A stretch of 64,000 nucleotides of DNA from Kiritimatiellota bacterium (GTDB lineage Bacteria; Verrucomicrobiota; Lentisphaeria; Oligosphaerales; JAADHN01): positions 1 through 64,000 of the forward strand of contig JAADHN010000095.1 in the NCBI GenBank assembly GCA_013151865.1, in the 5' to 3' direction. This document shows positions 1 through 17,605 of this stretch, piece after piece. Each line of letters starts with the position of its first letter. The stretch's first letter is position 1. The notes below the pieces were generated by a model. It saw only the letters and a program-made list of their open reading frames with translations. It searched no databases and was not told the origin of the DNA. Both the position numbers and the translations under genes were made by a program.

Positions 1-3000
1 GGGGCCGGGGAGGCGTTGACGACCGTGAGCGCGGCCGGTGGGCTGGTCACATCGCCACTGCGTGCGGTCAGCCACTGTTCGCCGCGGGTACCGGGCGTGA
101 ACGCCAGTCGGTAGGTGTGGGTCCCGGCGTCGGTCTCGTAGAACGTATACGGTTGGGGCAGCCGAGCGCGGTCGTCGCTGCTGGCGAAATTCGGGGTCGC
201 AATGTAGTCGGTTTTGAGGTTGTCGAACCGGTCGTACACCGAAACCGTAACATCCATGGCTGTGCCTGCGGCAACGGTTGCCTGACCAAGAGCGACCGCG
301 ATCCGTGCCAGCGCGGCAGGCCGGATCACGAATGTTGCGGAGTCCGCCGCCGCAAGGCCGGTCGCAGTCGCCCGGAGTCGGTATGTGCCGGCCTGAGTCA
401 TGCTCAGGTCTGCGAACTCCGCAATGCCGTTGACGGCGTTCACGACGGCGTTGCCATTGAGGGTGGCGTCGCGGGCCCCGGGAACCAGCGCCACGGTGAC
501 GCTCGCCGTGCTGTCGCGGACGGCGTTGCCCCAGGCGTCCACCACGGTGACGCGGACCGGTTGGTCGAACACGGTTCCGGCTTCACCTCCGGCGGGCGGC
601 GCGGAGAACGCCAGGGTCGCCGGGGCGCCGAACGTGGTCGAAAACGCCGCGCTCGTGTGCGGGAAAACGGTCCCGGTTGTCGAGTCCTGAATATCACCCA
701 CGACGGAGACGGTGTAGCGGGTCACGCCGTCCAGAGGGGCCGTGGGGGCAACGGTGATGATCGTCTTTCCGGCATCGATGGTGACGGTTGCGGGGACGAC
801 CTGTACGCCGGAGGAAAAGGTAACGAGTCCGGCAACGTTGCCGGCGGAGATCTCGCCGCCGCCGGGCAAGGTGACGGGATGATCGAACGTGATGGTGGGG
901 TGAACGGTGCGGAGGACGTCCACGTCGTCCGGGTGCGGGTCGAACGTGAGTCCCGGAGTCGAGTTGTCCACTTTGATCCTTCGCGTCAGCGTGGGCGATG
1001 CATCGCCCCAGGCATCCGTGGCCGTGACGCGCAGCCAGACCGTGCTGTCCACGGCGTCGAGCGGGAGGCTTTGCCACTCGCATTCATAGGGCGGTGAGGC
1101 GATGGGGAACCAGCATTCGGACCATGTGCCGTCGGCGCCGTCAGTGGAGTCCAGGGAGTATTCGAAGCGGACGGTCAGGTTGTCTCCATCGGGGTCGGAG
1201 GCGGTCACCGCGCAATGGATCGTACCGGAGTACCATTGATCGGCGGCGGGCTCGTTCCACGCGTCGACGGCGGGCGGGCGGTTGGCGATCTGGATGAACC
1301 GGCTCTCGGATGTGGTAAAGATGCCGTCGTCGTCCACAGCCACGGCGTAGACCTCGTAATCGCCCACAGGGAGGTTGTCCCATGTGACGCTGTAGGGGGC
1401 CGTGACGTCCTCGCCGCCGCCCACGAGCGTGTCGTTGGCGAAGAAACTGACGCTGGCCACTACGCCGTCCACATCGTCGGCAACGGCCTCGAACGCGAGG
1501 CTGTCGCCGCCGGTCAGGTTTTCGAAGCCGGTTGGAGAAACCAAGTGTACGGACGGGCCGTGGCCTGCGACCGTGATTTCAATGTCGGTGAACAGGCTGC
1601 CGACTGCGGCGGTAATGACGGCGCGTCCGAGCGGCCCCACACTGGTGACGACTCCCTGGGGATCGACGACCAGGATTGCGGGATCGGACGTTTCCCAAGT
1701 GATGGGATCGGTCGTGGTGGGATAGAGCGGGGCGACGGCACCGCTAGAGTATTCCGCTTCCAGACCGAGCTGGATCGAGGCGCCCTTGTTCAGAACCGGG
1801 GTGAACGCCGCGGGATAGATGGCGACGATTTCGCCCATGTTGAAGGCGCCGATCAGCAACGGCTCGATGACGACGGTCTTGCCGCCGGTCCCGAGGTACG
1901 AACAGTGCAGGTAGACTTGGCCGTGAGTGAGGGGATCGACCGCCACGTGTACGATCATCGGGTCGGTGGCATCCGGGGTGAGCGTCACGCCCAGGTCGCT
2001 GCCCTGGAGTCCGTTGATCACGCTGGCATACCATTCGGGTTGTGCCCCATCCGCAATGGGGAAGGCGGCGGGGGGGTGCAGTTCATACACGAACTCGTCG
2101 GGGGCCGGCGTGTCGCCACGCCTCGCAGTCGGAACAATGATGTTGTTTTCGCGCGGGTTGGGCAGGATGCGGAGGCTATCCCGGATTTTTTGCTTAAGGG
2201 CTGCCTCCTGCGTCGACAACGGGGCGTCTCCTTCCGGATTGCCGTCGGTGTTGCCCAGGCCCGCGGCGTAGTTGTGGAAGGTCCCGAACGCGGCGCTCGA
2301 TCCGGATCCGACCGGGCCGTCCAGAAGGTCGCGGACACGCAGGGCGGCCAGCTTCGAATTGGTCTGACAGTAATAGGTGCCGAACACCGGGATTTGAACG
2401 TTCTTGGTTTTGAGTATCTTCTGGACCAAGCCGGTGGTGGCCTGCAGGAGCAGCGCCTTCCAGTCGCCGGTTCCGACATTCTTGGCCAAGTCCCACAAGT
2501 CACTGAGGGTCATTGGGCCGGGCGGCTCGCCGATGATGGCGGTTACCGGAAATGGCGGGACGTGGGAGACCCAGCCGGCGTCGGAAACCGGGTCGGTCTC
2601 GTTGCGTTCGATCAAAGTGTCCCCGGCAGCCGTCCATTCATCCAGGTTGGTGATCATGCCGGCGGCGGCGCCGGTAACATAGTCGACGCCGCCAAAGTGA
2701 CTGCGCCAATCCACCAGTCCGTCGCTGAAGCGGTACGGATGACCGGAATCGGGGGGCGGCAACGTGAATTCGAAAAGTCCGTTGGGCGCGCCCTTTTTCA
2801 GGCCGAGCTGTTGGAAGATGGGCCAAACCCCGAGGGAATCGTGGTTCACCACTGTGCTGATCAAATGGAATTTTGCCTTCGGGTGGACGGGTAAATCCCG
2901 GTTGATTTCGACGATTTCGCCGATGAAGGGATCGAACTTCGGTTCGAGGTATCCGCCGCGCTCCGCGTAGTAGGGCAAGGCGGCGCCGACCAAGGAGGCC

Positions 3001-6000
3001 GCGGCACCGAGCAACGGCAGAGGCTGGGCGAGTGCACCGGGGTCGTCGGTGGCGAGTTCCCGGGCTTGTTCGAGGGCGACGTCCTTGTAGAGCCGCCAGT
3101 ACGCGGTGAGTCGCGAGCCGCGATGCGGTGCGCCAATGGTGACAATGCGCCGGAATCGGCCGCGATTGCAGTTGCGTTCGTGGAGGAATGTCATGGCCCG
3201 ACCGATGTCTTCATTGCTGCACAACATTCGGACCAGCACACCGCCCTGACCGTGCCCGACCACATCATAGCGGGTAAAGGCCCATCGGTCTTCGCGGCGG
3301 AATTTTTCTTCTATGGTGTAGAGTTTGAGCGTGAGCATTCGTTCGAGGGTGCGGAGATCGGCGGATGCGTTGGCGCTTTTCTGCCAGTAAGTGGCGCTTT
3401 TCACCGCGGAGAGAAACGTACCGAGAATGTCCGGTTGATCATTCTCCGGCAGGACGCCGAGGTCCGTGAGTTTGCTCTTGACGGCATCGAGCCAGCCTTG
3501 GGTGGTGCTGTATTGTCCGTACAAAACTTCGAGGTCGGTGTACGCGCCTGGGTTGTCCTTTGCAAACGTCCCCAGAAAGTCGGCCAGCATACCGACGGGC
3601 ACTTTCTCTTGGCCATAGGCAACTGCCTGTACGAAGCCCGGTTCGCGGCGCATCTCGAGGATTTGTTTGAATTCGGAGGACCAGGTTTCGGCGGAGGCAT
3701 TGAAGCCGTGAACCAATACGATGGGCGGTTTAGTCACTGAAAACGGGACCGCGGCGAACGGTGGGTCGCCGTCGTCGGTCATGTCCAGCCCCTGGCCGTT
3801 GACGGGTTTTTTCCAAAGTTTCAGTTGTATCTTGGCCGCGAGCACCTTTTCGTCGATCGGCCAGGGCACGGCTGGATCGGTGAAATCAAATCCCTCGATG
3901 TAGAAGATGGTTTCGAGCGTGTTGACGCCGTCCGGTCCGACGACGGAGGCGACTTGGGGCCCAGTGATGGGGCAAGGCTCGAAGGCTTGGTTGAAGTGGT
4001 TGTAGACGTGGAGCTTGTTTAGGCTGATGTAATCGGCGAGATTGTCTGAATCGGCGTCGCCGTCCAAGTTCACGTAATACTCGCCTGCCGGCAGGTCCAG
4101 GCGAATGATGAGAGGAGTGACGCCGTCGGCCGCCATGCCCTGGGCTTCGTGGTAGTTCGAGTAGCGAATGAGTTCGCGATAAGTGTCGGTGACGCGGACG
4201 GGAACGTCGATCATGGTGCCGGTGGTGCGGTTTGCGTCCGAACTCGCAGCGTCCCGGTCGTCTTTATCCCAGGCGCGGGTGACGCGTTTATAGGGCGTCC
4301 AAAGCCCATAGACCCCGGCCCAGTACTGTCGGCGGTGCAAGGCGATTTCGAAGTGGTCGTCGGTCTCGGCCTGCCAGACGATGGAATAGCCGCCGAATCC
4401 ATCGTTTGCGCTGATGGGGACCTCGATGGAGGCCCCGGGAGCGCCGCCGGCGAGATCGATAGTCGGGTCGGGCGGGCATGGCTTGGCCGGCCAGGGCTTG
4501 AAAGTGGCGGTGACGTGGATATCCTGGTCGCGGAGGTTGACCACTGTGTCGGGCTCGGCGGACTCGAAATTGACGTCGGTCGGGTCCTCGTACCCGGTCC
4601 AGGCGAGGAATTCTTTTTCGGGGCGAAGGGAGATACGGGGGGCGAGCGCGTCGCGGTCGAGCAGTTGGCTGACGGCGTACTCGGCAGCGGGTTGAACGAC
4701 CCCCGTGGCGAGGGTGACGGCACCGTGATAGATACGGCAACCGTTCGCGGTGTCGTCCTCGTTGTCCCGACCGTCGCTCCAGACCACGTGGAGCACGCCG
4801 TCGCCCACGGCCAGATCCGGGTTGCCCCGCTCGACCTCTGCCTTCGGTCCTGAGACCGCGACACTGCGTGTTTCGACCGTGCCGTACTGGTATTCCGTAC
4901 CGGCTTTGCCGGTGCCGTGTCCGTCCCACTTGATCCGGGAATAGCGGATTTGGTAGCCATTGGAGGCGTCCCACGGGTCACGCCCGAGCCAAACCACGTG
5001 GACCCGGTCGTTGTCGTCGACCGCGACGCGCGGCTGCGGCAGGTAGAATCCCGGTTGGATGTCGCCGGGGATGTTGATCCGCAGCGCCCGGGCGTTGACG
5101 ATGATGGATTTGGCTTTTTCCGAATTCGAGTACTGGAGCATCAAGTCGCCCGCCTTCCAACCGATCCCTTGCACATTGGTTTTTTCGCCCGGGAGGTTCT
5201 TGCCGCTGGGGCCTTCGACGCTATTGGCTTCCCGGGCCTTCCAGATCACATGGGAAATGCCTGCCGCGTCCACGGCCACCACGGGAGGCTCCATCGTTCC
5301 CGGCGGCCCGCCCAGAGTCGGTCCGGCCCAGGCATGGAGTTCTTTTTTCGTCACATTCCCCTGGGCGTCAAGTCGCAGCACGCGGATGCTTTCCTTGTAC
5401 TGGCGGAACGGGTAACCGCCGATGAACTTGGCTTCGTCCGTGTACAGGAGTGTGGCGATCACGGGCAGGTTGGTCTTCGGATCGATGGCGATATCGGCGC
5501 CGGCATACTCGGCGTGGATCAGCATGGTAGTCCCGGCAGTCACGGCCCGGTGGAGCACAACGGCGCCGTCCGGGCCGATTTTGTAGTAGCGGATGATGCT
5601 GCCGTCCGCCACCGCGATGTGTGCCGCGCCGTCATAATCCGCGGCGATGACGGGCAGAAACGTCGCGGTGTTGACCGTGCCGAGGTGGAGAGCTGGTACT
5701 GGATCGCCGCCGGCGTCCCTGGCCTGCATGGCGCCGCCCTTGGACATCTTGGCGTAATAGAGTTCCCGTCCATCCTTCCAGACCACGTGAGAGTTCTCGA
5801 GGTAATCGACCGCAACGTCCGGCACGGACCCTTTCAACGCGCCTTCGCTGAGGACGGTTCGAAAAACGTTCGTGTCCGCATAGGGCGGCGGCGGATCGCC
5901 GGCGCGGGCGGCGGCGACGGCCAGAGCGGCGCCCAGCAGCAGGGCCAACCCGGACGGCAGGCTGGGACGCTTGCGGTGAGGAGATGTTGCGGCGAGACTC

Positions 6001-6002
6001 AT
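1..6002 (-). CDS. Giant exported propeller / lipase-like / Ig-repeat protein (3' end outside window)
   Basis: The frame stays open from the ATG at 6002 to the left window edge, giving at least 2000 residues with no stop. The Shine-Dalgarno TAAGGAGG overlaps the stop codon of the upstream giant gene, so the two are cotranscribed. Residues 1-35 form a signal peptide (basic start, then a Leu/Ala-rich core). Residues about 36-560 carry repeated strands of the type 'AVDxxDRVHVVW', as in sialidase/TolB-like propellers. Residues about 740-1170 look like an alpha/beta-hydrolase of the lipase type: an oxyanion segment PIVLVHGFNAS, then VVGHGQGG near residue 917. The expected nucleophile serine of GHSxGG is glycine here. 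Several Ig-like modules follow: a Big_2-like one (about 1380-1480), a 'SPTGFENLTGGDSLAFEA' module, an SbsA-like one and filamin-like ones. A surface role in binding or processing a polymer or lipid is an inference. The true length is unknown. Confidence 0.85.
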   Translation of the reverse strand, partial: MSLAATSPHRKRPSLPSGLALLLGAALAVAAARAGDPPPPYADTNVFRTVLSEGALKGSVPDVAVDYLENSHVVWKDGRELYYAKMSKGGAMQARDAGGDPVPALHLGTVNTATFLPVIAADYDGAAHIAVADGSIIRYYKIGPDGAVVLHRAVTAGTTMLIHAEYAGADIAIDPKTNLPVIATLLYTDEAKFIGGYPFRQYKESIRVLRLDAQGNVTKKELHAWAGPTLGGPPGTMEPPVVAVDAAGISHVIWKAREANSVEGPSGKNLPGEKTNVQGIGWKAGDLMLQYSNSEKAKSIIVNARALRINIPGDIQPGFYLPQPRVAVDDNDRVHVVWLGRDPWDASNGYQIRYSRIKWDGHGTGKAGTEYQYGTVETRSVAVSGPKAEVERGNPDLAVGDGVLHVVWSDGRDNEDDTANGCRIYHGAVTLATGVVQPAAEYAVSQLLDRDALAPRISLRPEKEFLAWTGYEDPTDVNFESAEPDTVVNLRDQDIHVTATFKPWPAKPCPPDPTIDLAGGAPGASIEVPISANDGFGGYSIVWQAETDDHFEIALHRRQYWAGVYGLWTPYKRVTRAWDKDDRDAASSDANRTTGTMIDVPVRVTDTYRELIRYSNYHEAQGMAADGVTPLIIRLDLPAGEYYVNLDGDADSDNLADYISLNKLHVYNHFNQAFEPCPITGPQVASVVGPDGVNTLETIFYIEGFDFTDPAVPWPIDEKVLAAKIQLKLWKKPVNGQGLDMTDDGDPPFAAVPFSVTKPPIVLVHGFNASAETWSSEFKQILEMRREPGFVQAVAYGQEKVPVGMLADFLGTFAKDNPGAYTDLEVLYGQYSTTQGWLDAVKSKLTDLGVLPENDQPDILGTFLSAVKSATYWQKSANASADLRTLERMLTLKLYTIEEKFRREDRWAFTRYDVVGHGQGGVLVRMLCSNEDIGRAMTFLHERNCNRGRFRRIVTIGAPHRGSRLTAYWRLYKDVALEQARELATDDPGALAQPLPLLGAAASLVGAALPYYAERGGYLEPKFDPFIGEIVEINRDLPVHPKAKFHLISTVVNHDSLGVWPIFQQLGLKKGAPNGLFEFTLPPPDSGHPYRFSDGLVDWRSHFGGVDYVTGAAAGMITNLDEWTAAGDTLIERNETDPVSDAGWVSHVPPFPVTAIIGEPPGPMTLSDLWDLAKNVGTGDWKALLLQATTGLVQKILKTKNVQIPVFGTYYCQTNSKLAALRVRDLLDGPVGSGSSAAFGTFHNYAAGLGNTDGNPEGDAPLSTQEAALKQKIRDSLRILPNPRENNIIVPTARRGDTPAPDEFVYELHPPAAFPIADGAQPEWYASVINGLQGSDLGVTLTPDATDPMIVHVAVDPLTHGQVYLHCSYLGTGGKTVVIEPLLIGAFNMGEIVAIYPAAFTPVLNKGASIQLGLEAEYSSGAVAPLYPTTTDPITWETSDPAILVVDPQGVVTSVGPLGRAVITAAVGSLFTDIEITVAGHGPSVHLVSPTGFENLTGGDSLAFEAVADDVDGVVASVSFFANDTLVGGGEDVTAPYSVTWDNLPVGDYEVYAVAVDDDGIFTTSESRFIQIANRPPAVDAWNEPAADQWYSGTIHCAVTASDPDGDNLTVRFEYSLDSTDGADGTWSECWFPIASPPYECEWQSLPLDAVDSTVWLRVTATDAWGDASPTLTRRIKVDNSTPGLTFDPHPDDVDVLRTVHPTITFDHPVTLPGGGEISAGNVAGLVTFSSGVQVVPATVTIDAGKTIITVAPTAPLDGVTRYTVSVVGDIQDSTTGTVFPHTSAAFSTTFGAPATLAFSAPPAGGEAGTVFDQPVRVTVVDAWGNAVRDSTASVTVALVPGARDATLNGNAVVNAVNGIAEFADLSMTQAGTYRLRATATGLAAADSATFVIRPAALARIAVALGQATVAAGTAMDVTVSVYDRFDNLKTDYIATPNFASSDDRARLPQPYTFYETDAGTHTYRLAFTPGTRGEQWLTARSGDVTSPPAALTVVNASPA

Positions 6003-6017
6003 CGTGCTCACTCCTCC

Positions 6018-9000
6018 TTACCGGCGCGGGTTATTGTCCGCGGGATCCCAGACGCGCACAGCCGGTTCCCGACAGAAAATCCAGTACCCGACCCATGGTT
6101 TACAGGGCAACGTGTCGTCCGGGGTCGTGACGGTTCCCGGTGTTGCATAAGTCTGTTTTTCAGCATCCCAGGCGAAGATGCTCAGGATCGTCTGAGCGTT
6201 TGGTTCGGGGCTTTCGATAAACGGCGCCACGAGGTTCCAGCCTCTCGACAGTTCCAAGGGCTGCGGCGTGGTGGGGAGGCCGCGGAGCACGAGGGTCTTG
6301 GGCTGTTCGGCGTACGCCCAATAGCCTCTGCCGGGTTCCAGGACCGTGGTGGTTACATAAATGCCTTTCGCCGCGTTCCACTGCCAAAACGTCAGGTCGG
6401 CGGGGGGGGCTCCCCGGTCGGAAAGGGCCAGCGGGACGCCGATGAGACTCCAGCCGCTGGGAAGCTCGTAGACGACTTCCTGGTCGGAAAGCCCTCCTCC
6501 TCCTGCTCCGTCCACGTCGATGATGACCGTATCGCTTCCGTATTCCGTGCTGCCCACGGTGATTTGACCGACAGGCGGTGTGAGAACCAGGCCGGAGTTC
6601 CCGGAGCAAGGCGCGAGGGTTGCCGGCCCCGCCTTCAAGGCCCTGAAAGTGAGTACTGCGTACAGGACCGGCTCGCCGTGTCCGAGCCCGTTCAACACAG
6701 TAAGGCCGCCGAGTTGCGAGATGCGGTCGGCCCGGAGGGCGCCGTTGGTGAGGACCGAGTTGAACGGAGCGGCCAGGACGTCGCGGGGCTCGAAACTCCC
6801 TGCGAGAGCCACCCGCTCCGGGTCGAAGCGAACATCGATCGGACCGCCGCGAAAGCCCTGGGCCAGAGCGGTGTTGTCCCGCGCCCAAATCTCGATTTGA
6901 AAAGTCTCTCCCACCGTGACTCGGTCCGGGGCGTCGATCCAGAGGGTGACGGCAGCCGGGATGTTGCGAGCAGCCGCCAGGAGGTTCGCCGGGATAACCT
7001 CCGTCCGTTGCGGGTGGTAATCGGTGCCGTAAAGTCCGAACAGGGTGCCGGCGTCGTCGAAATCCACGTCGTCGTCGCCGTCGAAATCGCACCTGGAGTC
7101 CCAGGTGGGTTCCGTAGCGACTTCGCTGTAATGGCCGATGAAATACAAGAGGTCGTTGAATCCCACCTCGAGGTTTTCATCGAAGTCTCCGGGGTTGATC
7201 ATGCTGCCTTCCCGGCGAATGTGGACGGCGGCCAGGACCGTGCGTTCGTCGCCGTCGCGGGCCAGGCGTGCGGTTACGGTCGCGTCGCCGAACTGGGCGG
7301 CGTCGAGCACCGCGAGTGTTGTCCCCGTGAGCGATGCCACGCCGGGCGGGTCGACACCCAGCTCGAGGCTGGGGTCGGTTGTGACTTCCTCCACTGTTCC
7401 GGATGCGAAGTGTGCAAATACGTGATAGTCCACCGACTGTCCGCGTGTGAGGGAGATTTTGGCCGGGTCGATGCTCAGACTGATGAACGTGGGCGACTGC
7501 ATCGTGAGGGTGGCCGTGCCCGTCCGAGTTGTGCCCAGTTCCGCATAGGTCCCGGTCACGGTAATGACCGTCCCGGGGCTCACGCCGGCGCCTACGGTCA
7601 CGGTCGCTCCCGAAACGGCGGCGGCCCCGGGTGGGTCCACGGCAAACGTGGTCCGGGCCGTAACGTCCGCTGTCGAGCCGTCGGCGTACCCGGCGTCCGC
7701 GCTGAACTCGACGGTATCGCCGGCGCTGACCGAACGGGCGAGCGGGCTCAAACGGAGCGTGTCCACACTCTCGCGTCGATAGACTGTGGCATACCCTTCG
7801 GTCCAGGCAATCATAAGGCCGCTGCTGTCGCCGGTGAACTGGGCGGCCGCGGGACCGAGATTGCTGTCCGTGCCCATACTCGGCGGCGTGAAAATCGCCA
7901 GTTCCCGCGAGGAATTCAATTCGATCAGGTGTCCCTGCTGTCTGGCGGCGGCAATACCGAAAAAGAGCAGTGAACCGTCGTGGGAAAGGGCCAGCGTGGA
8001 ACGGGGGGAACTGTTCTTGACGGCTCCCATGAAGGCCTCGAATAGACGCCCGGTGGGGGTAATGGCGCCGCCGCCATCGTAGTTCAGGCCGTACACCTGC
8101 ACGTACATATACGTTGTGGACTCGCCGCTGAACCCGTTTGTTTCCACGTAGTTGACAACGACGGCGAGTCGCTGCCCGTTGGCCGATACGGTGAGAGCGT
8201 CGGTGGTCGGCCCCGTCAGTTCGCTGCCTACGGGTGCCGAGTCCGGCGGTTGGCCTACCGGCTCGATGTCGATTCCGGAGTAGCGCAATCCGCCGGTATT
8301 GAAGATCGATACGAAATCGCTGTCAGGGACCGAGCCGAGGGACTGATTGTCCGGCAGGTACGCCACGTCCGCGCTCGTGACGGGGTTTTCATGGAAGACG
8401 GTGGGAAAGTCCAGCGAGATATCCCAGAAACGGGTGAGGGCGCCCGGACTATTGGTGATGAGTCGCGTGCCGTCGTGCGAGATGTCGAAAGCGTCGCAAT
8501 CGGTGTGCACGCTCATGTACAAGAGACGCTGGGCCGCATCCATGAGGTAGATCGAGGAGCGGACACGGGCGCCGATCAGACCGGCGGCGTCCCCGGTCAT
8601 GGCCAATCCCGAGAAACTGTACGGAACGAAATACCCGGTTTCGAGAAATCGGGTTTCCGTAACGTTGCCGCGGGCAGCCGCTCCCCAGCGGATGACCCGC
8701 CGGTCGCTCTGCGTGAACAGGGTGGCGCCGTCCTCCGAGATTCGGGCGTCTTTCAGCGAATAGCTGTGCGCCAGGGAACCACTGTAACTGCCCCGGGACA
8801 AGTTCCAGAATTGGGCCGAGTGGAACGGGGACGACACCTTGATGGTTTCGCCCATTTCCGTCTCTTTTTCGATGACACAGGTGCGGCGTCCGGTCACGAT
8901 ATGTCGACCATCGGGAGTGACCGTCAATGCGGAAACCACGCCCTGATTGGGCGGGACGGCGATCCAATTCAGCAGGAGTCCGTCGGGGTTGTAGACCCAA

Positions 9001-12000
9001 ACCGCGTTGCTGCCGTTTCCCTGGGTGGCAATGTACAGGTAGCCGTTATCGCTGCGGACGGCGAGGGCGGACGGCGTGCTCGGGAAGAAATACTCGGCCA
9101 GGTTATCGTCGGCGCTTCCCTTGTTCCAGCGGGCCAAGCGGTTGTCCTCGCTGAGTACGCTCATCACGTTACCGGTGAGCGCCACGGCGACCGGGGGTTT
9201 GGCGAAGGCGGTGTAGGTCATGTCCGTACTGCCGTCGGCACGGTCGAGCAGGTAGACTCGCCGATCTTTGCCGCCGGTGAGGACCGAGTCGGCGTCAATG
9301 GCCACGGCTGTGACCGGCCCTTGGTGCAGATCGACGGACCAGACGACGGCGTTGTTGTCCAGATCGTAAAGCATCACGCGGCCCAGGTTGTCGCCGAGCA
9401 CGGCCAAGCGACCGTAAAAGGCGGCGCAGGTGAGAGCTGCGTCGTGCAAATAGCGGGTCAACGGGGCCGAATTGTGACCGGGGGCGATGTCCCACTGGAG
9501 AACCAGGCCGTCGCCTCCCACCGTAACCAGCGTATCGTTATCGGGAAAATACACGTATTCGACGGGCCGCGAGTGGGCGGAGATGACGTCTCGAAGTTCG
9601 TATTGCGTCGGGGTCTCTCCGACCGTATAGATGCCGACGGCCCCGGACGAGAAGCCGACGGCGAAGAGTGTGTTGTCCGGGGAATAGGTCATGGCGCCCA
9701 CATCGCCCCCGGCGGTGGTCCAGTTCCGTGCCCAACGGGCCTGAGGCGCGTGCACGCTGATGATGGTGGCGGCGGTGCGAGTGACGCCGTCGAATGTGTA
9801 AGTGCCCTCGATGTGAATATCGCCGGGCGTTGCGGTGACCCGCACAGTCACGTTGTTGCCGGCGACTCGCACTTTCTCCGCGGGGTCTGCCGTCAGCGCC
9901 GTATCCTGAGTGACTTCTTCCTCGTAGCCGTCGGCGAACAAGGCGTAATACCGGATGGGCTGGACCACGCCCTTGCCGAGGGATACGGCGACCGGATCGG
10001 CCCGGAGCGCCACCACCGGGCTGGCCCCGACCGTGAGCGTGGCCGTGGCGGAGCGGGTGATGCCGCCTTCACTGAAAACCGCCGTGATGGCGATGTCCCC
10101 CGACGCGCCGGGATTGACCGTGACCTTGTCGGCTTCGATGGTGACGGCTTCGGGCGGGTCGGCATACAGGCGGGAGGCCGGGGCCAGTTCGAGTCCGGTG
10201 GCGCTGTAGATATAGTGCGGCGAGACGTCGATGCTGCTGCCGTCGTCGTAGACGGCCCGTACCGTGTAGGTTTGCGAGCGTCCTGCGGGGAGAGTGCGCG
10301 TGACGGGACTCAGGCGGAGGCTGTCCAGTCGCGACCGGTTGAAGATTTCCACGTAGTTGTCGCTCCAGGCAATATAGAGCATGGCGTCGTGGGTCCCGAA
10401 CCCGACGGACAGAGCATAACAGCTTGCCTGGTCCGAATGCGTGGGGTAGAAGTAGCGCAGCACGTTCCCGGTTCGCATGTCGAACAACCGCACGCTATTG
10501 CCGCGGGCGATGGCGAGCATCGTGCCGTCGTGGGAAAGGGCGGCGTCGTAGATGGGGGGAATACCGTAGCCCGACCGATAGTCGTACAGCCCAACCGGGT
10601 CGTTGGTGTCGAGACGATAGAACTGAACGCCGGCGTACCGGTCCACGCAACCGACGCGGATCCCGTCAGGATGGTAAAGGACCTTGCGGGGCTTGTACGG
10701 GTCGGTGAGCGTGACGCCGTATTCGAGGCTGCCCGTGAGGTCGCTCGTGAGCATGGTTTTGATGGTCATGTTATCGAAAAACGCGATACCCCAAAGCGAC
10801 TCGTCCGGGCTGAACGCGGAGCGGTAAGCGCCGTCGTCGTTCGGCGTGTTGGTCAGAATCTGTCCGGAGAGCGTCCGGATGAGACGGTCGCCGTGGATGG
10901 TGGTGGCCCCGGTGCGGGAGAGCGTCAGGGGGGCGTAATCGGCGCCGATGTCGTTCGAGTTGATCAAGGTCAGGCGGTCTTCGTCCACCGCGTAAAACTC
11001 CAGTTGACCGCCGATGACGCGGGTGAGCTTACGCCCGTCCGGGGTGACGTCGAATGCATCCTGGTTGTCGATTTCCGGGCTCTGCAGAATGGTTTTTCCC
11101 GGCTGGGTGAAGAGAACGTCCAGCCCCTCTGAATTCATAAAGAATATGCGGTTGCCGTCCTCGGAAACGCGTACGCGCTCCTCGAGTTGTCCCCAGTCCC
11201 AACCGCGCACACGGCCGCGGGGACCGACGAATCCGAGAAACTCTCCGTCAACGGTCGAATACTGTACGGCCAGGGCGGCAGGATAGTTCCAGTCGTTGTA
11301 CGCGTTGCTGCAGATCAGCACGCGTGCGCCGTCGTCGCTGAAGCGAATGCTCGAAAACTTGTCGGTGTAGTGCCGCGAGGGGAGGACTTCCGCCCAGAGG
11401 TGGTTCCCGACGCCGTCGAACAAATGGAGGCGGCGAGTGCTGCCCGAACGGGTGAGAATGGCCACGCGCGTGCCGTCCCGGGATCCCGCGGCGCCCATGG
11501 CATCCTCGCCGTCGAGTGAGACGGTGCTGATGGGATTGACATTGTCGGCGACATCCCAGATTCCCACGGTGCCGTCCGTGCTGGTCGTGAGCAGACGGGT
11601 ACCGCCGGCGATGAACGAAACGCCTGTGACGGGTTCGCTGTGCCCCTGGAAGTGGCGGATAATGTTGCCGGTTTCGGCGTCCAGCAAGTAGGCCCGTTTA
11701 TCGCCGGCCCCCACCAGGACTTTCGAGCCGTCCGGTGCGTAATCCGCCGCATAGAGGATGGCTTCGGCGCCGGTGGTCCCGGTCACGAATTCCCACAGCG
11801 TCCGCCCGGTGGCAAGGTCCAGAAGCAGGGCTTTGCCTTCGGTAACGATAAAGAGTCTGGTCGCGTCCGGCGACGGCGTGGCGTATCGGACCAACAGGTC
11901 GCTGAACAGGTTTTGCTCGAGATCGCCGGTACCGGCGTTCCACAGGTAGACCGCGCCGTCGTACGTGACCGTAATGGCCAGGGAGTCGTCGGCGCTGAAC

Positions 12001-15000
12001 CCGGCGTATTGCACTTTGTCGTAATGTTTGTGGAGCATCAGTAAGGGCCGATTGGCGTCCGAGTCGTACAGGTACGCCGTGCCGGACGAGTAGCCCAGAA
12101 TGATCTTCGTTCCGTCGTGACTGTAGGCGCCGCTGACGCTGGTACCCCCTGGGCTCCGGTACGTGAGGGTCCAATTCGTTTGTTCGGCCGCAACGGGCAA
12201 TTCCGAGCGGACAACTGCGTGTCGCACCGGGGTAACGCCGCCCTCGATGACGTCGTTGGGGCCGGGCGTTGCGTCCTGGGCACGGAGGGCAATCGTCAGT
12301 GCATCGTCGTTGGCCAGGTCCGCGAAGTCCGCCACCAGCAGGAAATCGCCGCCGCTCACGAGGAAGGGGGCGGAGAAAACGATGCTGCCGGTACGCGTAT
12401 CCGGGTCGATTTGGACCAAGCCCGGGCCACCCACAGTCTCGTTTTCGCCGGCGTCGATGATACCGTTGCCGTTGGTGTCCACATGCAGTCGGGCGTTGGT
12501 AATGTCGCCCGCGGCGATCCCGTCCACCCCTGAGAGGGGGAAAGAAATGGCGGCGACTTGCCGGCCCCCGGGAAAGACAGTGAATCCAAGGAGAGGAATA
12601 CTCCGCAAAGTCGTGGCCGCGGTAAAGCCGTTCGCGGCTTGGAAGGCCGGATCGAGAAGCAGCATGGGGCGGGGTACGGTGTGCGTGGTCGGGGCGTTTG
12701 AACCAACCACTTCCACCAAGGGATCGACCGGCGCAATGCCGCTGCTGAGTACTTGGGCGGTAAGTTGGTCGTCCCGATGCAACCCGGTAAAGTCAGCCAG
12801 AACCACGAAATCCGTTCCCGTGGCAATGGGTGTGACCCCGAAGGCAAAATCGATCTTCCCGCCGGCGCCGGAGAGTTGGACTTGGGAAGCAGACCACACA
12901 GCTTCGCCGAAGCTCGCTTGGCCGTCGCCGTCGGTGTCCACGAGCAGGCGGACGTTGCGCAGATTCGTGGCGTCGATGCCGGAAATGCCGGAGAGCGTCA
13001 CAGAAATCGCTTGGATATCGAATCCCGCGCCCAGGGAAAAAGCGGTGAGGACGATGCCGGGCTGATCGGCCGCCGCCAGCAGACCGCCGCCGATCTGCCC
13101 CGAGCGATGGTCGCCCAGGAACAGCCGATCCCGGTAATGGGCCGCAGCCGTGCAGGAACCGGCGAGAAACAGGCCGGGGTCTGTAACGATGTCCTCGGCG
13201 TCCACGCGGAGCGCCAACGCGTCGCCACTGGCGATATCCGCCAAGTCGGCGATCAGTAGCCAGGCCCCTTCCAAGTCGAAGGCGCCGGTGAAAGTGATGG
13301 TCTGGGCCGCAGTGTCGACAACCCCCGTGGCAACGACGGTATCCGCGCGACCGCCGGCAAACGCCCCGTCGCTGTCTTCATCCCGGATCAGGCGCACATT
13401 GGTAAGATTCGCGTCGTCCATCTGCTCGACATGCGGAAGGCGAACCACCAGGCTGGTAGCGGGGACGGCGCCGTCGGCGGACTCGACGGCGAACCGCAAC
13501 AGGAGTGCATCGGGAATGTCGCCAACGGCCAGGAAAGCGTTCCTGGCCTGGCCCAGCGGGTGGTCGCCCACCGAAGTGATCGTGATCAATCCCGTGGCGG
13601 CGTACGGCGTGAACACGGCATCCCCGAGGATGCTGTCGCCGAGGCCGAAGGGGTTGCTGGGGTGATTGGGACCGCTCGGGTGCCCCCAGTAGTTGTCGCG
13701 ACAGTCCAATACATTGTTGCCACCATTGGATATCGCCGCCATGCTGTTGCCGATAAACGTGCAGCCCTGGAGATGCCACTGGCCGGGGTCGGCCAATAGT
13801 TCGATGCCGATCCCGTTTTCCCGGAATAACGAGTCATCGATGGAAATGGACGTGCCGGCCCTCGAGGAGGCGAACTGGGTGATGGCCCTGGGAAACCCCT
13901 TGAACGTGGGACCGACGCCGTTGTAGGAACGAACGGTGAGGCTCGCGGAATCGTATACAGTGATCGCGTGGGCGACGGCATAGTCCCAGTAGGAAGGATC
14001 GGTATCGAACGAGCCGCCGCGCACCGTAGCGGAGGCGCCGTCGGACAAAGCGATCAGGGTGGCTTCTGTGATCGCGGAATAATCATCGCCGCCCCGGAAA
14101 CTGCAATCGGTAAAGTCGGCCGTGCCGCTGCCCACGATGTCGATGACACGCGTTCCTTTGCTCCCGGCATTGGCATAGCAATAAGTCCGGAGATCGAAGA
14201 ACGTCCCGGTCGCGTTCAACGCGCCCTGCACCACGAAGGCGTCGTGTTCCCCGCCGGTGTCGATGGTGTAGTTGTCCACGCGACAGCCGGCGGGAAACGT
14301 CAGGGACGCACCCTGGGCAATGATGATCGGATTCGAGTAGCAATAGATGCCGATGATAGCATTGCCGGGCAGCGTCACGTCGCGAGTGACCGAACTGCCT
14401 CCGTCCACGCGGATGTCGCGGCCGTTGTCGCCGAAGACCAGTCCGGGCGTATCGCCGAAGACATCCAGTGTGGTACAATAAATCGCCTCGGTGAACCCAT
14501 CCATCTCCGTGACCGCCCGCCCCGAATCCGGAACGGAGAGACGACTCGCCCCCTGAAGCACCACCGCCCGCGCCACAGGACTGCTCGGGTCGCTGTTGAA
14601 GGTACAGCTCGACAGTGTGATTTGTCCGTTGTCCGTAGCCCCGAGCAGCCCGGCCGAGTCATGGTAGGTTGTCGTTTCCACGCCGTTGAAGGTGCAATTG
14701 GTAAAACTCCCGCGGCCGTCGCCCAAAAACCAGAACTTGGTTCCATGCTGATACCGGTACGTTCTCAAGTCGAACACGACGTCGGTTGCATTGAGTTGTC
14801 CGCGAACCTGAAACTCGTTTCGGGTGTTGTTGTAGACCATTGAAATGCGGCTACCGGGACGGATGTCCACTGTCACCCCCGCCGGAACGAGGTACGGATA
14901 ATAATTGTCGATCGTCAGGTCGCTGCACGCGAGGGTCACGTCCGCCGCCACCGTGAAAAGGTTGCCCGGCCAGGACGTCGGGGATACCAGGCAGGCGTAT

Positions 15001-17333
15001 TCGAGGGCGTCGCCGGTGAAAACCGTGCCCGGCTCGACGGTCGGACAGTTCTTCAACGTGTTGGACTCGATGGGGCGCCAGAAATTGGCGAACGAACTGG
15101 GCGTGCCGTCGAAAGCGCGCACAGTCACGTCGGCGTTGTCCCTGATCCACATGAACCGAGGCGTGTCGGCATTGCCGTCCACGCTGGTTTGCACTCGGCA
15201 ACCGGAGACTGTGACCCGGGAATCATTGCCCGCGTAAACGACGGCGCTGTTTCGAGCGTAAGATACCGTGTCGGCCACTTCGATAACGCAATCGGTGAAA
15301 GACAACACGCCTGAGCCCTGTGTGGTAAAGAGGTACCGGTCGTAGTACGTCCAGAACTTCATGTCCGTGCCCGTACAGGCCACGGTCCCATTGATCTGGA
15401 AGATGCGTTTCTCGCCGTCGCTGCGATTGGACAGCCTTGATCCAGCCGGGAAAGTGACGGAAATCCCCTCGGGAACGATCATTGGCCCGGAGCGGTCGTC
15501 GATCCGGACCGGCAAGGGGGGCAGGACTGCGTCGCTGGTGAAAGTGTATCCGCCGGCAACCTGGCAATAGCTGTTAGCGTCAAAATTCATGCCCGCCAAG
15601 CTGATTTGCGGGCTCAATACCTGCGCCATGGTCCCGGAGAATGCGGCCGGTGTGTTCACTGCGTCCACGCCGTTGGTCACCAGCACGCCGGCGTCCACCA
15701 GGTACAGGCCATTGGTGCAGTCGGTCATGTTCACGTCGGTCAGGAAAACGTTTCCGATCGTGTTACACTCAAAGGCGTAATCGCAACCGATCACGTCCAA
15801 GCCGTCCACTACCAGGTCCGTGGAAGCAGCGTGATACACGGCGCGCCGGAACCCGGACATGGTGGTGCGCACCGCGCCCGACGGATTGATCGAGGCCGTG
15901 GCGTTTCCCTGCACACGCACGGCGTGTTTCATTGTTCCCGGCCAACTCCCGTCACCGTAGTAATCGGACGCCGTTACGAACGTGCAGCCGCGAATGACGA
16001 TTTGCGCGTTGTCTTCACCGCCGACAAAGCTGTGATCGTACCAATCCGAATAATTGCCGGAACTGCTTGCCCCACGGAGGTTGCACTCGGTGAGGGTGAT
16101 CGTTCCCGATTTCCGGGCGGACAACAGCCATTGATAGTTGTCCACGCGTGCTTCGAACACGGCTTTCGCGGCTGTCAGCGCGCCGTCGACGATGAACATC
16201 GGGCGGTCGCCGCGGAGGGTGTCCAGGATAACCCCCTCCTCGATGGTCAGGGTCGCACCCGCTGCAATGGTGATCGGATTGTTTATGTGATAGTACGCCC
16301 GGGTGAGTGTCGTGTCCGCACTGATTGTGTTGTCCGCCGCGCTGTAGTCACCCTCGGCCAGCAGGTCGTAGGCGCAGTTGGTGAACGTTACCCCACTCAC
16401 GTCCGCCCCGGCACGGGCCGTGGATACATGCACGCCGATATACATGTTCGAAATGGCGCCCGTGATGCCGAAGCTGGTGAAGTCTTCGGTGTAAACCCCC
16501 ACCTGTTTGCCGACCGTGCCGGTTTGGGTGGCGGTGATATTCGTCAAAGAAATATCCTTCGCCGCCGGCAAGTCCAGGGCGGACTCGTAGTCAGTGAATG
16601 TCGAGTCGGAGACAATCACGTCCACCGCCGCATTGTCCACGTGGATGCCGTGCGTCCCCCGTGCGAAGTCCGCACCGGAGACCGACACGCCGGCCGTGGA
16701 TTCCCACCATATGGCTTCCGGAAAATCGCTGAACGCGCTGCGGATCGCGCCGTTGGCGGTGACCGTCAGGGTGGCGGTGTCTTCCACCCGAATGCCCTGG
16801 TTGACGCGAATCCCGGACGTGGATGCGCTCAGGCTCGTTCCGCTGAGCGTGACGGCGCCTGCTCCTTTGCCCAGCAGCAGGACCGTGGTGTCCTCCTGGT
16901 TCGCTTGGATTTGCTCGACCGAGAGCGTGCAGTCGGTGAATGTTGCCGTGCCTTCGACCACGATGGGCGGCTTGTTGGTCAGATCTCGGGTCTTCAGGAA
17001 AAACGTGACCCCGGCGGCGATCAGTGTGCCGCCCGGTTCGACATGAATCGTGGTCTTGTTGTCGAAGCCCGAATTGACTGTCACTCCGGCGGCAATGGTC
17101 AAGGTGACCCCGGCCGGCACGGTGACGACTTGGGCGTCCGACTGGTTGTTCACCACGTACGGCTGGGTGGTGTCCCCCCATACCGTGCCGTCCGCCACAA
17201 CGCCCTCGACATTGACGTCCGCCCGTGTCGACAGCGAACAGAAAACCAGGGCGACGGCCACCCCGGTCGATCGGCGGATTACCTGCATAAACAAGCTTCT
17301 AAATAACGGCATACCGGTTCGTGCCGATCTCAT
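6018..17333 (-). CDS. 3771-aa exported beta-helix / propeller / Ig / dockerin / cohesin-like protein
   Basis: The frame extends upstream to 17597, but I start at ATG 17333. It has GAGGAG nine bases upstream, it opens a signal peptide (LFRSLFMQVIRRSTGVAVAL, cleavage near STRA-DV), and a sigma-70 promoter lies inside the extension. Approximate order: residues 40-1240 right-handed parallel beta-helix, ending in NYWGHPSGPNHP; 1310-1720 three related ~140-residue beta modules, each with an acidic loop such as DTDGDG or DTNGNG; 1728-2330 a WD40/YVTN-like propeller; 2335-2530 two Big_2-like Ig domains; 2530-3190 a second propeller; 3190-3370 two more Ig domains; 3376-3440 a dockerin-type double calcium loop (DFDENLEVGFNDLL and CDFDGDDDVDFDD); 3451-3610 a cohesin-like sandwich; 3618-3771 two GWSLIG/GWNLV ... 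GYWAY/GYWIF repeats, probably for sorting or anchoring. No catalytic site is evident. A large surface adhesin or scaffold is the likeliest role. Confidence 0.88.
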   Translation of the reverse strand: MRSARTGMPLFRSLFMQVIRRSTGVAVALVFCSLSTRADVNVEGVVADGTVWGDTTQPYVVNNQSDAQVVTVPAGVTLTIAAGVTVNSGFDNKTTIHVEPGGTLIAAGVTFFLKTRDLTNKPPIVVEGTATFTDCTLSVEQIQANQEDTTVLLLGKGAGAVTLSGTSLSASTSGIRVNQGIRVEDTATLTVTANGAIRSAFSDFPEAIWWESTAGVSVSGADFARGTHGIHVDNAAVDVIVSDSTFTDYESALDLPAAKDISLTNITATQTGTVGKQVGVYTEDFTSFGITGAISNMYIGVHVSTARAGADVSGVTFTNCAYDLLAEGDYSAADNTISADTTLTRAYYHINNPITIAAGATLTIEEGVILDTLRGDRPMFIVDGALTAAKAVFEARVDNYQWLLSARKSGTITLTECNLRGASSSGNYSDWYDHSFVGGEDNAQIVIRGCTFVTASDYYGDGSWPGTMKHAVRVQGNATASINPSGAVRTTMSGFRRAVYHAASTDLVVDGLDVIGCDYAFECNTIGNVFLTDVNMTDCTNGLYLVDAGVLVTNGVDAVNTPAAFSGTMAQVLSPQISLAGMNFDANSYCQVAGGYTFTSDAVLPPLPVRIDDRSGPMIVPEGISVTFPAGSRLSNRSDGEKRIFQINGTVACTGTDMKFWTYYDRYLFTTQGSGVLSFTDCVIEVADTVSYARNSAVVYAGNDSRVTVSGCRVQTSVDGNADTPRFMWIRDNADVTVRAFDGTPSSFANFWRPIESNTLKNCPTVEPGTVFTGDALEYACLVSPTSWPGNLFTVAADVTLACSDLTIDNYYPYLVPAGVTVDIRPGSRISMVYNNTRNEFQVRGQLNATDVVFDLRTYRYQHGTKFWFLGDGRGSFTNCTFNGVETTTYHDSAGLLGATDNGQITLSSCTFNSDPSSPVARAVVLQGASRLSVPDSGRAVTEMDGFTEAIYCTTLDVFGDTPGLVFGDNGRDIRVDGGSSVTRDVTLPGNAIIGIYCYSNPIIIAQGASLTFPAGCRVDNYTIDTGGEHDAFVVQGALNATGTFFDLRTYCYANAGSKGTRVIDIVGSGTADFTDCSFRGGDDYSAITEATLIALSDGASATVRGGSFDTDPSYWDYAVAHAITVYDSASLTVRSYNGVGPTFKGFPRAITQFASSRAGTSISIDDSLFRENGIGIELLADPGQWHLQGCTFIGNSMAAISNGGNNVLDCRDNYWGHPSGPNHPSNPFGLGDSILGDAVFTPYAATGLITITSVGDHPLGQARNAFLAVGDIPDALLLRFAVESADGAVPATSLVVRLPHVEQMDDANLTNVRLIRDEDSDGAFAGGRADTVVATGVVDTAAQTITFTGAFDLEGAWLLIADLADIASGDALALRVDAEDIVTDPGLFLAGSCTAAAHYRDRLFLGDHRSGQIGGGLLAAADQPGIVLTAFSLGAGFDIQAISVTLSGISGIDATNLRNVRLLVDTDGDGQASFGEAVWSASQVQLSGAGGKIDFAFGVTPIATGTDFVVLADFTGLHRDDQLTAQVLSSGIAPVDPLVEVVGSNAPTTHTVPRPMLLLDPAFQAANGFTAATTLRSIPLLGFTVFPGGRQVAAISFPLSGVDGIAAGDITNARLHVDTNGNGIIDAGENETVGGPGLVQIDPDTRTGSIVFSAPFLVSGGDFLLVADFADLANDDALTIALRAQDATPGPNDVIEGGVTPVRHAVVRSELPVAAEQTNWTLTYRSPGGTSVSGAYSHDGTKIILGYSSGTAYLYDSDANRPLLMLHKHYDKVQYAGFSADDSLAITVTYDGAVYLWNAGTGDLEQNLFSDLLVRYATPSPDATRLFIVTEGKALLLDLATGRTLWEFVTGTTGAEAILYAADYAPDGSKVLVGAGDKRAYLLDAETGNIIRHFQGHSEPVTGVSFIAGGTRLLTTSTDGTVGIWDVADNVNPISTVSLDGEDAMGAAGSRDGTRVAILTRSGSTRRLHLFDGVGNHLWAEVLPSRHYTDKFSSIRFSDDGARVLICSNAYNDWNYPAALAVQYSTVDGEFLGFVGPRGRVRGWDWGQLEERVRVSEDGNRIFFMNSEGLDVLFTQPGKTILQSPEIDNQDAFDVTPDGRKLTRVIGGQLEFYAVDEDRLTLINSNDIGADYAPLTLSRTGATTIHGDRLIRTLSGQILTNTPNDDGAYRSAFSPDESLWGIAFFDNMTIKTMLTSDLTGSLEYGVTLTDPYKPRKVLYHPDGIRVGCVDRYAGVQFYRLDTNDPVGLYDYRSGYGIPPIYDAALSHDGTMLAIARGNSVRLFDMRTGNVLRYFYPTHSDQASCYALSVGFGTHDAMLYIAWSDNYVEIFNRSRLDSLRLSPVTRTLPAGRSQTYTVRAVYDDGSSIDVSPHYIYSATGLELAPASRLYADPPEAVTIEADKVTVNPGASGDIAITAVFSEGGITRSATATLTVGASPVVALRADPVAVSLGKGVVQPIRYYALFADGYEEEVTQDTALTADPAEKVRVAGNNVTVRVTATPGDIHIEGTYTFDGVTRTAATIISVHAPQARWARNWTTAGGDVGAMTYSPDNTLFAVGFSSGAVGIYTVGETPTQYELRDVISAHSRPVEYVYFPDNDTLVTVGGDGLVLQWDIAPGHNSAPLTRYLHDAALTCAAFYGRLAVLGDNLGRVMLYDLDNNAVVWSVDLHQGPVTAVAIDADSVLTGGKDRRVYLLDRADGSTDMTYTAFAKPPVAVALTGNVMSVLSEDNRLARWNKGSADDNLAEYFFPSTPSALAVRSDNGYLYIATQGNGSNAVWVYNPDGLLLNWIAVPPNQGVVSALTVTPDGRHIVTGRRTCVIEKETEMGETIKVSSPFHSAQFWNLSRGSYSGSLAHSYSLKDARISEDGATLFTQSDRRVIRWGAAARGNVTETRFLETGYFVPYSFSGLAMTGDAAGLIGARVRSSIYLMDAAQRLLYMSVHTDCDAFDISHDGTRLITNSPGALTRFWDISLDFPTVFHENPVTSADVAYLPDNQSLGSVPDSDFVSIFNTGGLRYSGIDIEPVGQPPDSAPVGSELTGPTTDALTVSANGQRLAVVVNYVETNGFSGESTTYMYVQVYGLNYDGGGAITPTGRLFEAFMGAVKNSSPRSTLALSHDGSLLFFGIAAARQQGHLIELNSSRELAIFTPPSMGTDSNLGPAAAQFTGDSSGLMIAWTEGYATVYRRESVDTLRLSPLARSVSAGDTVEFSADAGYADGSTADVTARTTFAVDPPGAAAVSGATVTVGAGVSPGTVITVTGTYAELGTTRTGTATLTMQSPTFISLSIDPAKISLTRGQSVDYHVFAHFASGTVEEVTTDPSLELGVDPPGVASLTGTTLAVLDAAQFGDATVTARLARDGDERTVLAAVHIRREGSMINPGDFDENLEVGFNDLLYFIGHYSEVATEPTWDSRCDFDGDDDVDFDDAGTLFGLYGTDYHPQRTEVIPANLLAAARNIPAAVTLWIDAPDRVTVGETFQIEIWARDNTALAQGFRGGPIDVRFDPERVALAGSFEPRDVLAAPFNSVLTNGALRADRISQLGGLTVLNGLGHGEPVLYAVLTFRALKAGPATLAPCSGNSGLVLTPPVGQITVGSTEYGSDTVIIDVDGAGGGGLSDQEVVYELPSGWSLIGVPLALSDRGAPPADLTFWQWNAAKGIYVTTTVLEPGRGYWAYAEQPKTLVLRGLPTTPQPLELSRGWNLVAPFIESPEPNAQTILSIFAWDAEKQTYATPGTVTTPDDTLPCKPWVGYWIFCREPAVRVWDPADNNPRR

Positions 17334-17459
17334 GTGCAAAGACTCCTCGGGAAACTTGGGGGGAGCGTCTGACACGGAGCGCGGTTCCACGGCAAGGGTA
17401 GCGGGTCGTTTCCTAATGGCAGACGCTGTGATGGTCTTCTGCTCCACCAACAATAAAAC

Positions 17460-17488
17460 AATATACACGGAAGCCGGCCCGTTGTCAA
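17460..17488 (-). promoter_or_regulatory. Sigma-70-type promoter for the giant-protein operon
   Basis: On the minus strand, TTGACA (17488-17483) is followed by exactly 17 bases and then TATATT (17465-17460). That is a full -35 match and five of six at -10, in a locally AT-rich patch. The predicted transcript start near 17453 gives a leader of about 120 bases before ATG 17333. It also argues against the longer open frame starting at 17597. Confidence 0.6.
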
Positions 17489-17576
17489 TCACCGAGTGTC
17501 TGTTCTCGCATCGAGGACCCGACACTGGACACCGCAGCAAAATGATTCCGCGGTGCTGTCTCGCATCGGCCTGGAC

Positions 17577-17605
17577 TTTCCACGATGCCAAAAACACACT
17601 ATATT
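17577..17605 (+). promoter_or_regulatory. Candidate promoter for the signalling cassette
   Basis: TTTCCA at 17577-17582, 17 bases, then TATATT at 17600-17605. The -10 is good and the -35 moderate. Transcription would start near 17612 and give a leader of about 265 bases that contains the hairpin at 17669-17689. Sequence match only. Confidence 0.35.

What the first reader, a model, noticed from the sequence alone, without database searches (positions are those of the whole stretch)
6018..17333. One chain carrying dockerin-like and cohesin-like modules in a 3.8k-residue surface protein
Near the C-terminus the protein has a double EF-hand-like dockerin segment (DFDENLEVGFNDLL, DFDGDDDVDFDD), then a cohesin-like beta-sandwich of the kind used in cellulosomes. 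Having both in one polypeptide, next to propellers, Ig domains and a beta-helix, suggests self-assembly or intermolecular calcium-dependent joining of surface proteins, not a classical cellulosome. No separate cohesin scaffoldin is visible nearby.
Basis: partly seen in the sequence, partly recalled or inferred. Interest (0 to 1): 0.75.

Follow-up and report, generated by a model that had tools for sequence, protein, structure and literature searches.

The report
Giant surface protein with dockerin-cohesin pair
A very large secreted bacterial protein ends in a calcium-type plug module (dockerin) followed directly by a socket module (cohesin), and the gene next to it probably carries two more sockets, so these giant proteins may snap together on the cell surface without being a cellulose-digesting machine.

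Summary
Gene A (17333..6018) encodes 3771 aa: beta-helix, two WD40-like propellers, Ig-like regions, dockerin (7199..7002), cohesin (6959..6516) and a C-terminal tail. Alone, neither module hits Pfam, NCBIfam or the PDB. With relatives both are real. The dockerin profile hits a cellulosomal dockerin (E=3e-13). Distant relatives of the cohesin pass the Pfam Cohesin cut-off and, without any close relatives, find the window module (E=5e-11). A moderate AlphaFold model matches cohesins in its first 29 PDB hits.

The dockerin-cohesin tandem recurs in 13 of 48 genomes of the same order (Lentisphaeria-like). The window genome has one dockerin and three cohesins. In nine or ten relatives one chain carries cohesin-dockerin-cohesin.

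Best reading: a non-cellulosomal system joining giant surface proteins to each other or to the operon partner. Binding is untested. Dockerin and cohesin in one chain is known (adaptor scaffoldins, 'planctosome', ANME); the one-plug giant-protein form is a new variant.

The parts
6018..17333 (-). Gene A: 3771-aa secreted giant protein carrying dockerin and cohesin modules
   Evidence: Open frame without stops; 72% identical over 1738 aa to a Lentisphaeria MAG protein (L027) and 46% over 2719 aa to G022:C415
17214..17333 (-). Probable N-terminal signal peptide (MRSARTG...ALVFCSLSTRA)
   Evidence: Read from the sequence; no signal-peptide predictor was available
13671..16805 (-). N-terminal parallel beta-helix-like region
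   Evidence: Pfam NosD E=7.9e-7 at P0001 265-413 and NCBIfam NosD at 1251-1309
11307..12122 (-). First WD40-like beta-propeller
   Evidence: Pfam WD40 families, best E=3.8e-36 at P0001 1826-2097
9246..9695 (-). Second WD40-like propeller (core)
   Evidence: Pfam WDR55, EML and TEP1 propeller stretches at P0001 2635-2788
7002..7199 (-). Dockerin module: two F-hand calcium loops (DFDENLEVGFND, DFDGDDDVDFDD) with symmetric helix residues (F10, G18, Y20 in both)
   Evidence: Profile hit to PDB 2y3n_B dockerin E=3.4e-13; Pfam Dockerin_1 in 7 of 13 aligned members; leave-out HMM E=9.5e-15; loops listed
6516..6959 (-). Cohesin module, about 15 residues after the dockerin
   Evidence: Family profile hits the G025 Pfam-positive cohesin E=6.7e-13; hhalign E=9.4e-17; leave-out HMM E=5.4e-11; AlphaFold and Foldseek: first 29 PDB hits all cohesins
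6039..6476 (-). C-terminal tail of two GWxLxGxP...GYWxF units, candidate sorting or anchoring domain
   Evidence: 26 matches in the genome; 5 of 5 checked end 0-11 residues before a stop
6003..6017 (-). 15-bp gap between genes A and B with a GGAGG ribosome-binding site
   Evidence: Sequence GGAGGAGTGAGCACG between TAA and ATG
3..6002 (-). Gene B, 5' part (about 2000 aa; alpha/beta-hydrolase-like domain, Big_7, Big_5, Invasin_D3-like), cut by the contig edge; its 3' half is probably G000:C64:1-2964 with two cohesins
   Evidence: Orthologues lie just downstream of gene A in G019, G042 and G045; a single G022:C322 ORF joins the P0002 C-terminus and the C64 region

Best explanation
This is a non-cellulosomal dockerin-cohesin system on giant secreted proteins. 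Shown: gene A's product carries one dockerin immediately followed by one cohesin near its C-terminus; the genome holds no other detectable dockerin and two further cohesins of the same family on a second protein. Inferred: that second protein is the 3' half of gene B, the operon partner. Inferred: the calcium-loaded dockerin of A plugs in trans into a cohesin of B or of another A molecule, while A's own cohesin stays free to take the next A. Copies of A and B would then form a non-covalent, calcium-dependent coat or chain that displays beta-helix and propeller domains, probably for adhesion. In relatives with cohesin-dockerin-cohesin on one chain the same modules would link copies of one protein.
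For: Dockerin identity and cohesin identity. One dockerin and three cohesins in the window genome. The dockerin-cohesin tandem is kept in 13 of 48 genomes of the order, with a 4-15 residue spacing in 14 chains. In G036, G037, G025, G031, G018 and G030 the only strong dockerin and both cohesins found are on one chain, so any partner of that family would be another copy or the same chain. Dockerin-following, N-terminal and partner-protein cohesins cluster by position in the tree (4 label changes, shuffled mean 14.1), so the positions are kept by descent. Gene B follows gene A in four genomes, and a single G022 ORF contains both the gene B region and the two-cohesin region.
Against: No binding data. 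The first calcium loop lacks the usual Gly at position 6 and has Gly at ligand position 9. The join of gene B to C64 is across an assembly gap of about 130 codons with no sequence overlap. Divergent dockerins or cohesins below detection, or in missing genome parts, could exist. The 4-15 residue linker also fits packing in cis. Cohesin-like domains without dockerin binding are plausible in surface proteins.
Confidence: 0.5

Rival explanations
1. Intramolecular cap: the dockerin packs onto the adjacent cohesin of the same chain, making one rigid calcium-stabilised unit before the C-terminal tail; it joins no other molecule.
For: The two modules are always adjacent with only 4-15 residues between them, and the spacing is conserved across divergent relatives.
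Against: Does not explain the extra cohesins, either upstream in the same chain (nine or ten genomes) or on the partner protein. The AlphaFold model of the dockerin-cohesin-tail part was too poor (pLDDT 47) to show any contact.
Confidence: 0.22
2. Spacer modules: both are calcium-stabilised or beta-sandwich spacers inherited from a cohesin-dockerin ancestor, with no binding function now.
For: Both modules diverged beyond single-sequence Pfam detection; loop 1 of the window dockerin is degenerate; the protein is otherwise built of surface repeat domains.
Against: Calcium ligands and the symmetric helix residues are kept across most relatives; the tandem is kept where the rest of the protein is replaced by other domains such as Kelch or CHB_HEX_C.
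Confidence: 0.22
3. Cellulosome-like enzyme complex in which the cohesins take up dockerin-bearing enzymes.
For: Gene B has an alpha/beta-hydrolase-like domain and probably two tandem cohesins.
Against: The genome has no second dockerin at E<=0.01; the only dockerin is on a protein with no enzyme domain; most relatives also show one strong dockerin each.
Confidence: 0.05
4. The segment after the dockerin is an ordinary Ig domain and the EF-hand-like motif is chance.
For: No Pfam, NCBIfam or PDB hit for either segment on its own.
Against: Leave-out HMMs at E=5.4e-11 and 9.5e-15; cohesins fill the first 29 structure matches.
Confidence: 0.01

Closest known systems
Adaptor scaffoldins of cellulosomes (cohesin and dockerin in one chain; described in PMC11557425)
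   Same: One chain bears both a dockerin and a cohesin.
   Different: Here the chain is a giant protein with beta-helix and propellers, there are no dockerin-bearing enzymes in the genome, and the dockerin is the only one found.
Proposed 'planctosome' of freshwater Planctomycetes (PMC6461901)
   Same: Non-cellulosomal; an adaptor with dockerin, another domain and cohesin, plus an anchoring protein with a cohesin.
   Different: The planctosome is proposed to take up peptidases through dockerins; here no further dockerin was found, and the tandem lies near the end of a giant protein.
ANME archaeal proteins with one dockerin and up to five cohesins (PMC9012536)
   Same: Dockerin plus cohesins on one chain, non-cellulosomal, proposed surface role.
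   Different: ANME genomes have many dockerin proteins, such as transporter binding proteins; here usually one strong dockerin per genome.
Cloacimonadota 'Ca. Stygibacter' cellulosome-like system (PMC8542988)
   Same: Large scaffoldin-like protein (3755 aa) with tandem cohesins and a C-terminal attachment domain.
   Different: That system has dockerin-bearing chitinase, amylase and peptidases.
Giant ORF with nine dockerins in Omnitrophota (PMC10066038)
   Same: Non-cellulosomal dockerins on a giant ORF, proposed to act in adhesion.
   Different: No paired cohesin is mentioned in the passage read.

Membership tests
Dockerin (Pfam PF00404) | Direct match of the window module to the Pfam model | tested here: not met
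   No hit for the window segment; the PF00404 search of the own genome finds nothing at the window module
Dockerin (Pfam PF00404) | Homology through relatives | tested here: met
   7 of 13 aligned members match Dockerin_1, best 2e-9; family profile to PDB dockerin 2y3n_B E=3.4e-13; leave-out HMM 9.5e-15
Dockerin (Pfam PF00404) | Two calcium-loop F-hand repeats with near two-fold symmetry | tested here: met
   Two loops, D1/D3/D12 and F10/G18/Y20 repeated in both; loop 1 lacks Gly6
Dockerin (Pfam PF00404) | Calcium-dependent binding to a cohesin | not testable with these tools
   Needs purified modules
Cohesin (Pfam PF00963) | Direct match of the window module to the Pfam model | tested here: not met
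   No hit
Cohesin (Pfam PF00963) | Homology through intermediate sequences that pass the curated cut-off | tested here: met
   G025, G036 and G037 cohesins score 29.7-31.7 bits against a 24.1 cut-off; the window family profile hits the G025 one at 6.7e-13, hhalign 9.4e-17, leave-out HMM 5.4e-11
Cohesin (Pfam PF00963) | Cohesin jelly-roll fold | tested here: met
   AlphaFold mean pLDDT 63.8, about 75 over the first 118 residues; first 29 PDB matches are cohesins, best E=1.9e-3, query TM 0.40-0.50. Moderate confidence
Cohesin (Pfam PF00963) | Binds a dockerin | not testable with these tools
   Needs purified modules
Cellulosome | Several dockerin-bearing catalytic subunits | tested here: not met
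   One dockerin in the genome at E<=0.01, on a protein without an enzyme domain
Cellulosome | Scaffoldin with repeated cohesins | tested here: inconclusive
   Two tandem cohesins on G000:C64, open at the contig edge; no Pfam carbohydrate-binding module found there
Adaptor scaffoldin | Dockerin and cohesin in one chain | tested here: met
Planctosome (proposed, PMC6461901) | Dockerin-bearing peptidases taken up by the adaptor | tested here: not met
   No second dockerin in the genome

The most novel reading that the evidence does not exclude
A one-plug system: a bacterial lineage that keeps a single dockerin per genome, joined to a cohesin near the end of a giant surface protein, and uses it to polymerise that protein into a calcium-dependent coat, with a two-cohesin operon partner as junction or base. 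It would be cohesin-dockerin chemistry used for self-assembly of adhesins rather than for enzyme scaffolding.
Probability: 0.3. Interest if true: 0.75.

Novelty: new variant of a known kind. Interest (0 to 1): 0.52.

Why it matters
Cohesin-dockerin pairs are among the strongest known non-covalent protein joints and are known mainly from enzyme scaffolds. A genome with one plug and a few sockets, all on giant non-enzymatic surface proteins, would be the simplest natural version of the system and a clean place to test whether it can build a cell coat. It also shows that Pfam misses this branch, so such systems in the Lentisphaeria-Verrucomicrobia group are probably under-counted.

Tried and rejected
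Single-sequence Pfam, NCBIfam and PDB searches of both modules gave nothing. Pfam PF00404 and PF00963 over the own genome missed the window modules. No overlap between the ends of contigs C89 and C64 was found, so the join rests on homology and geometry. A hit to a PADLOC HEAT-ARM model over the propeller was set aside as a repeat artefact. A classical cellulosome was rejected for lack of dockerin-bearing enzymes.

Full report
WHAT IS THERE. The finding's interval is read on the minus strand. The open frame runs 17597..6018 and the likely start is the ATG at 17333, giving 3771 aa with no internal stop. Pfam confirms two WD40-like propellers (best E=3.8e-36) and a NosD-like beta-helix. Residue numbers below use P0001, which begins 88 residues before the likely start.

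IS IT A DOCKERIN. The segment alone hits nothing in Pfam, NCBIfam or the PDB. Relatives in the same order give a profile whose best PDB match is a cellulosomal family-48 dockerin (2y3n chain B, E=3.4e-13), and 7 of 13 aligned members match Pfam Dockerin_1. An HMM built only from the distant relatives finds the window module in the whole protein at E=9.5e-15; the best shuffled decoy scores 0.13. The module has two 12-residue loops about 33 residues apart, with D1, D3, V8, F10, D12, G18 and Y20 repeated. Loop 2 is a full calcium loop; loop 1 lacks Gly6 and has Gly at position 9.

IS IT A COHESIN. The segment alone again hits nothing. The family profile gives one weak PDB hit, which is a scaffoldin C cohesin (5lxv, E=0.17). 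The firm evidence is by intermediates. The Pfam Cohesin model finds cohesins over its cut-off (29.7-31.7 bits against 24.1) in G025, G036 and G037, and these are the cohesins of the homologous dockerin-cohesin tandem. The window family's cohesin-only profile hits the G025 one at E=6.7e-13 in the same interval, profile-profile comparison gives E=9.4e-17, and an HMM of the distant ones finds the window cohesin at E=5.4e-11, best decoy 0.3. An AlphaFold model of the cohesin alone has mean pLDDT 63.8, about 75 over the first 118 residues. Its first 29 PDB matches are all cohesins, best E=1.9e-3, with query TM-scores of 0.40-0.50.

GENOME-WIDE INVENTORY. In the window's genome (6.2 Mb, 97% complete) the dockerin profile finds one dockerin, and the cohesin profile finds three cohesins: one here and two in tandem on contig C64. 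In the order, the tandem profile matches 16 of 48 genomes at E<=1e-5. Checked chain by chain, 13 of these genomes hold 14 chains with a firm dockerin-cohesin tandem, spaced 4-15 residues apart; G021 has a weak second cohesin, and the matches in G004 and G006 are mainly dockerin-like with no cohesin shown beside them in the stretches read. Most of these genomes have one strong dockerin; G022 has two strong tandems plus weak dockerins, and G001 one further weak one.

TWO ARCHITECTURES. In G001, G014, G018, G022:C138, G025, G030, G031, G036, G037 and (second cohesin weak) G021, one giant chain carries cohesin, a spacer of about 110-330 residues, dockerin, cohesin. In the window genome, G019, G042 and G022:C415/C322, one chain carries dockerin-cohesin and another carries two cohesins (in G019 the first of the two is cut by the contig edge). 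G045 (64% complete) shows only the first chain. A maximum-likelihood tree keeps cohesins of the same position together (4 label changes against a shuffled mean of 14.1), although several branches are long and support is uneven.

THE NEIGHBOUR. Gene B begins 15 bp after gene A's stop, with a GGAGG site, and runs off the contig at window base 1. Its orthologues follow gene A directly in G019 (56% over 206 aa), G042 (40%) and G045 (40%). Contig C64 begins inside an open frame that carries two cohesins, InlB-type repeats and the same tail. A single ORF in G022 (C322, 2372 aa) aligns with the last 425 residues of the gene B fragment at its residues 247-673 (43%) and with C64 from residue 810 on (44%). 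In G042 and G019 the gene B orthologue also runs off a contig end and the two-cohesin part also begins at a contig end. The simplest reading is that gene B and C64 are one gene with about 130 codons missing. No sequence overlap proves it, and domain shuffling is the alternative. I put this at about 0.85.

HOW IT PROBABLY WORKS. Shown: the modules, their adjacency, and the one-dockerin inventory. Inferred: calcium loading, binding in trans, and a surface location (signal peptide by eye; a tail that sits at the very C-terminus of 5 of 5 checked proteins out of 26 matches). In genomes where the only strong dockerin and both cohesins found are on one chain, any partner within this family must be another copy or the same chain, which favours self-association. 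In the window genome the operon partner adds two sockets. Packing in cis, or loss of binding, cannot be excluded.

AGAINST THE KNOWN. Cohesin plus dockerin in one chain is known from adaptor scaffoldins (PMC11557425), the proposed planctosome (PMC6461901) and ANME archaea (PMC9012536). A cellulosome-like scaffoldin is described in Cloacimonadota (PMC8542988), and dockerins on a giant ORF in Omnitrophota (PMC10066038). What differs here is the lack of any dockerin-bearing enzyme, the usual single strong dockerin per genome, and the fixed dockerin-cohesin tandem near the end of giant non-enzymatic proteins. In a sample of 338 genomes of the phylum the cohesin family was found only in this order; that search scored at most 11 candidates per genome, so it is a lower bound. 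Named relatives are two Lentisphaeria MAGs and one labelled Verrucomicrobia. I found no report of this form in the held literature, which is not complete; Peer et al. 2009, the main survey, was not held.

Noticed in passing
window 6039-6476 (-); G000 genome-wide: A C-terminal tail of two GWNLxGP...GYWxF units has 26 matches in the genome; 5 of 5 checked end 0-11 residues before a stop. It has no Pfam match and looks like a sorting or anchoring domain without a curated family.
   Followed up: partly
window gene B (3-6002, -), P0002 residues around GHGQGG: The alpha/beta-hydrolase-like domain of gene B has Gly at the nucleophile position (GHGQG), while two relatives have Cys (GHCQG), so the window copy may be catalytically dead.
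   Followed up: partly
G000:C64:1-2964 (L026): Open frame cut by the contig edge: MAM-like domain by eye, two cohesins, six divergent InlB B-repeats and the shared tail.
   Followed up: yes
G004:C407 (L051, L063, L067, L071): Another set of tandem Pfam-positive cohesins in a same-order genome, of a different branch, on long ORFs.
   Followed up: no
G006:C1, G004:C103 and C116: Giant ORFs of 9,000-11,000 aa with weaker dockerin-like modules and no clear cohesin beside them.
   Followed up: no
window 28214-30343 (+): ORF with sortilin/BNR propeller repeats, another probable surface or secreted protein.
   Followed up: no
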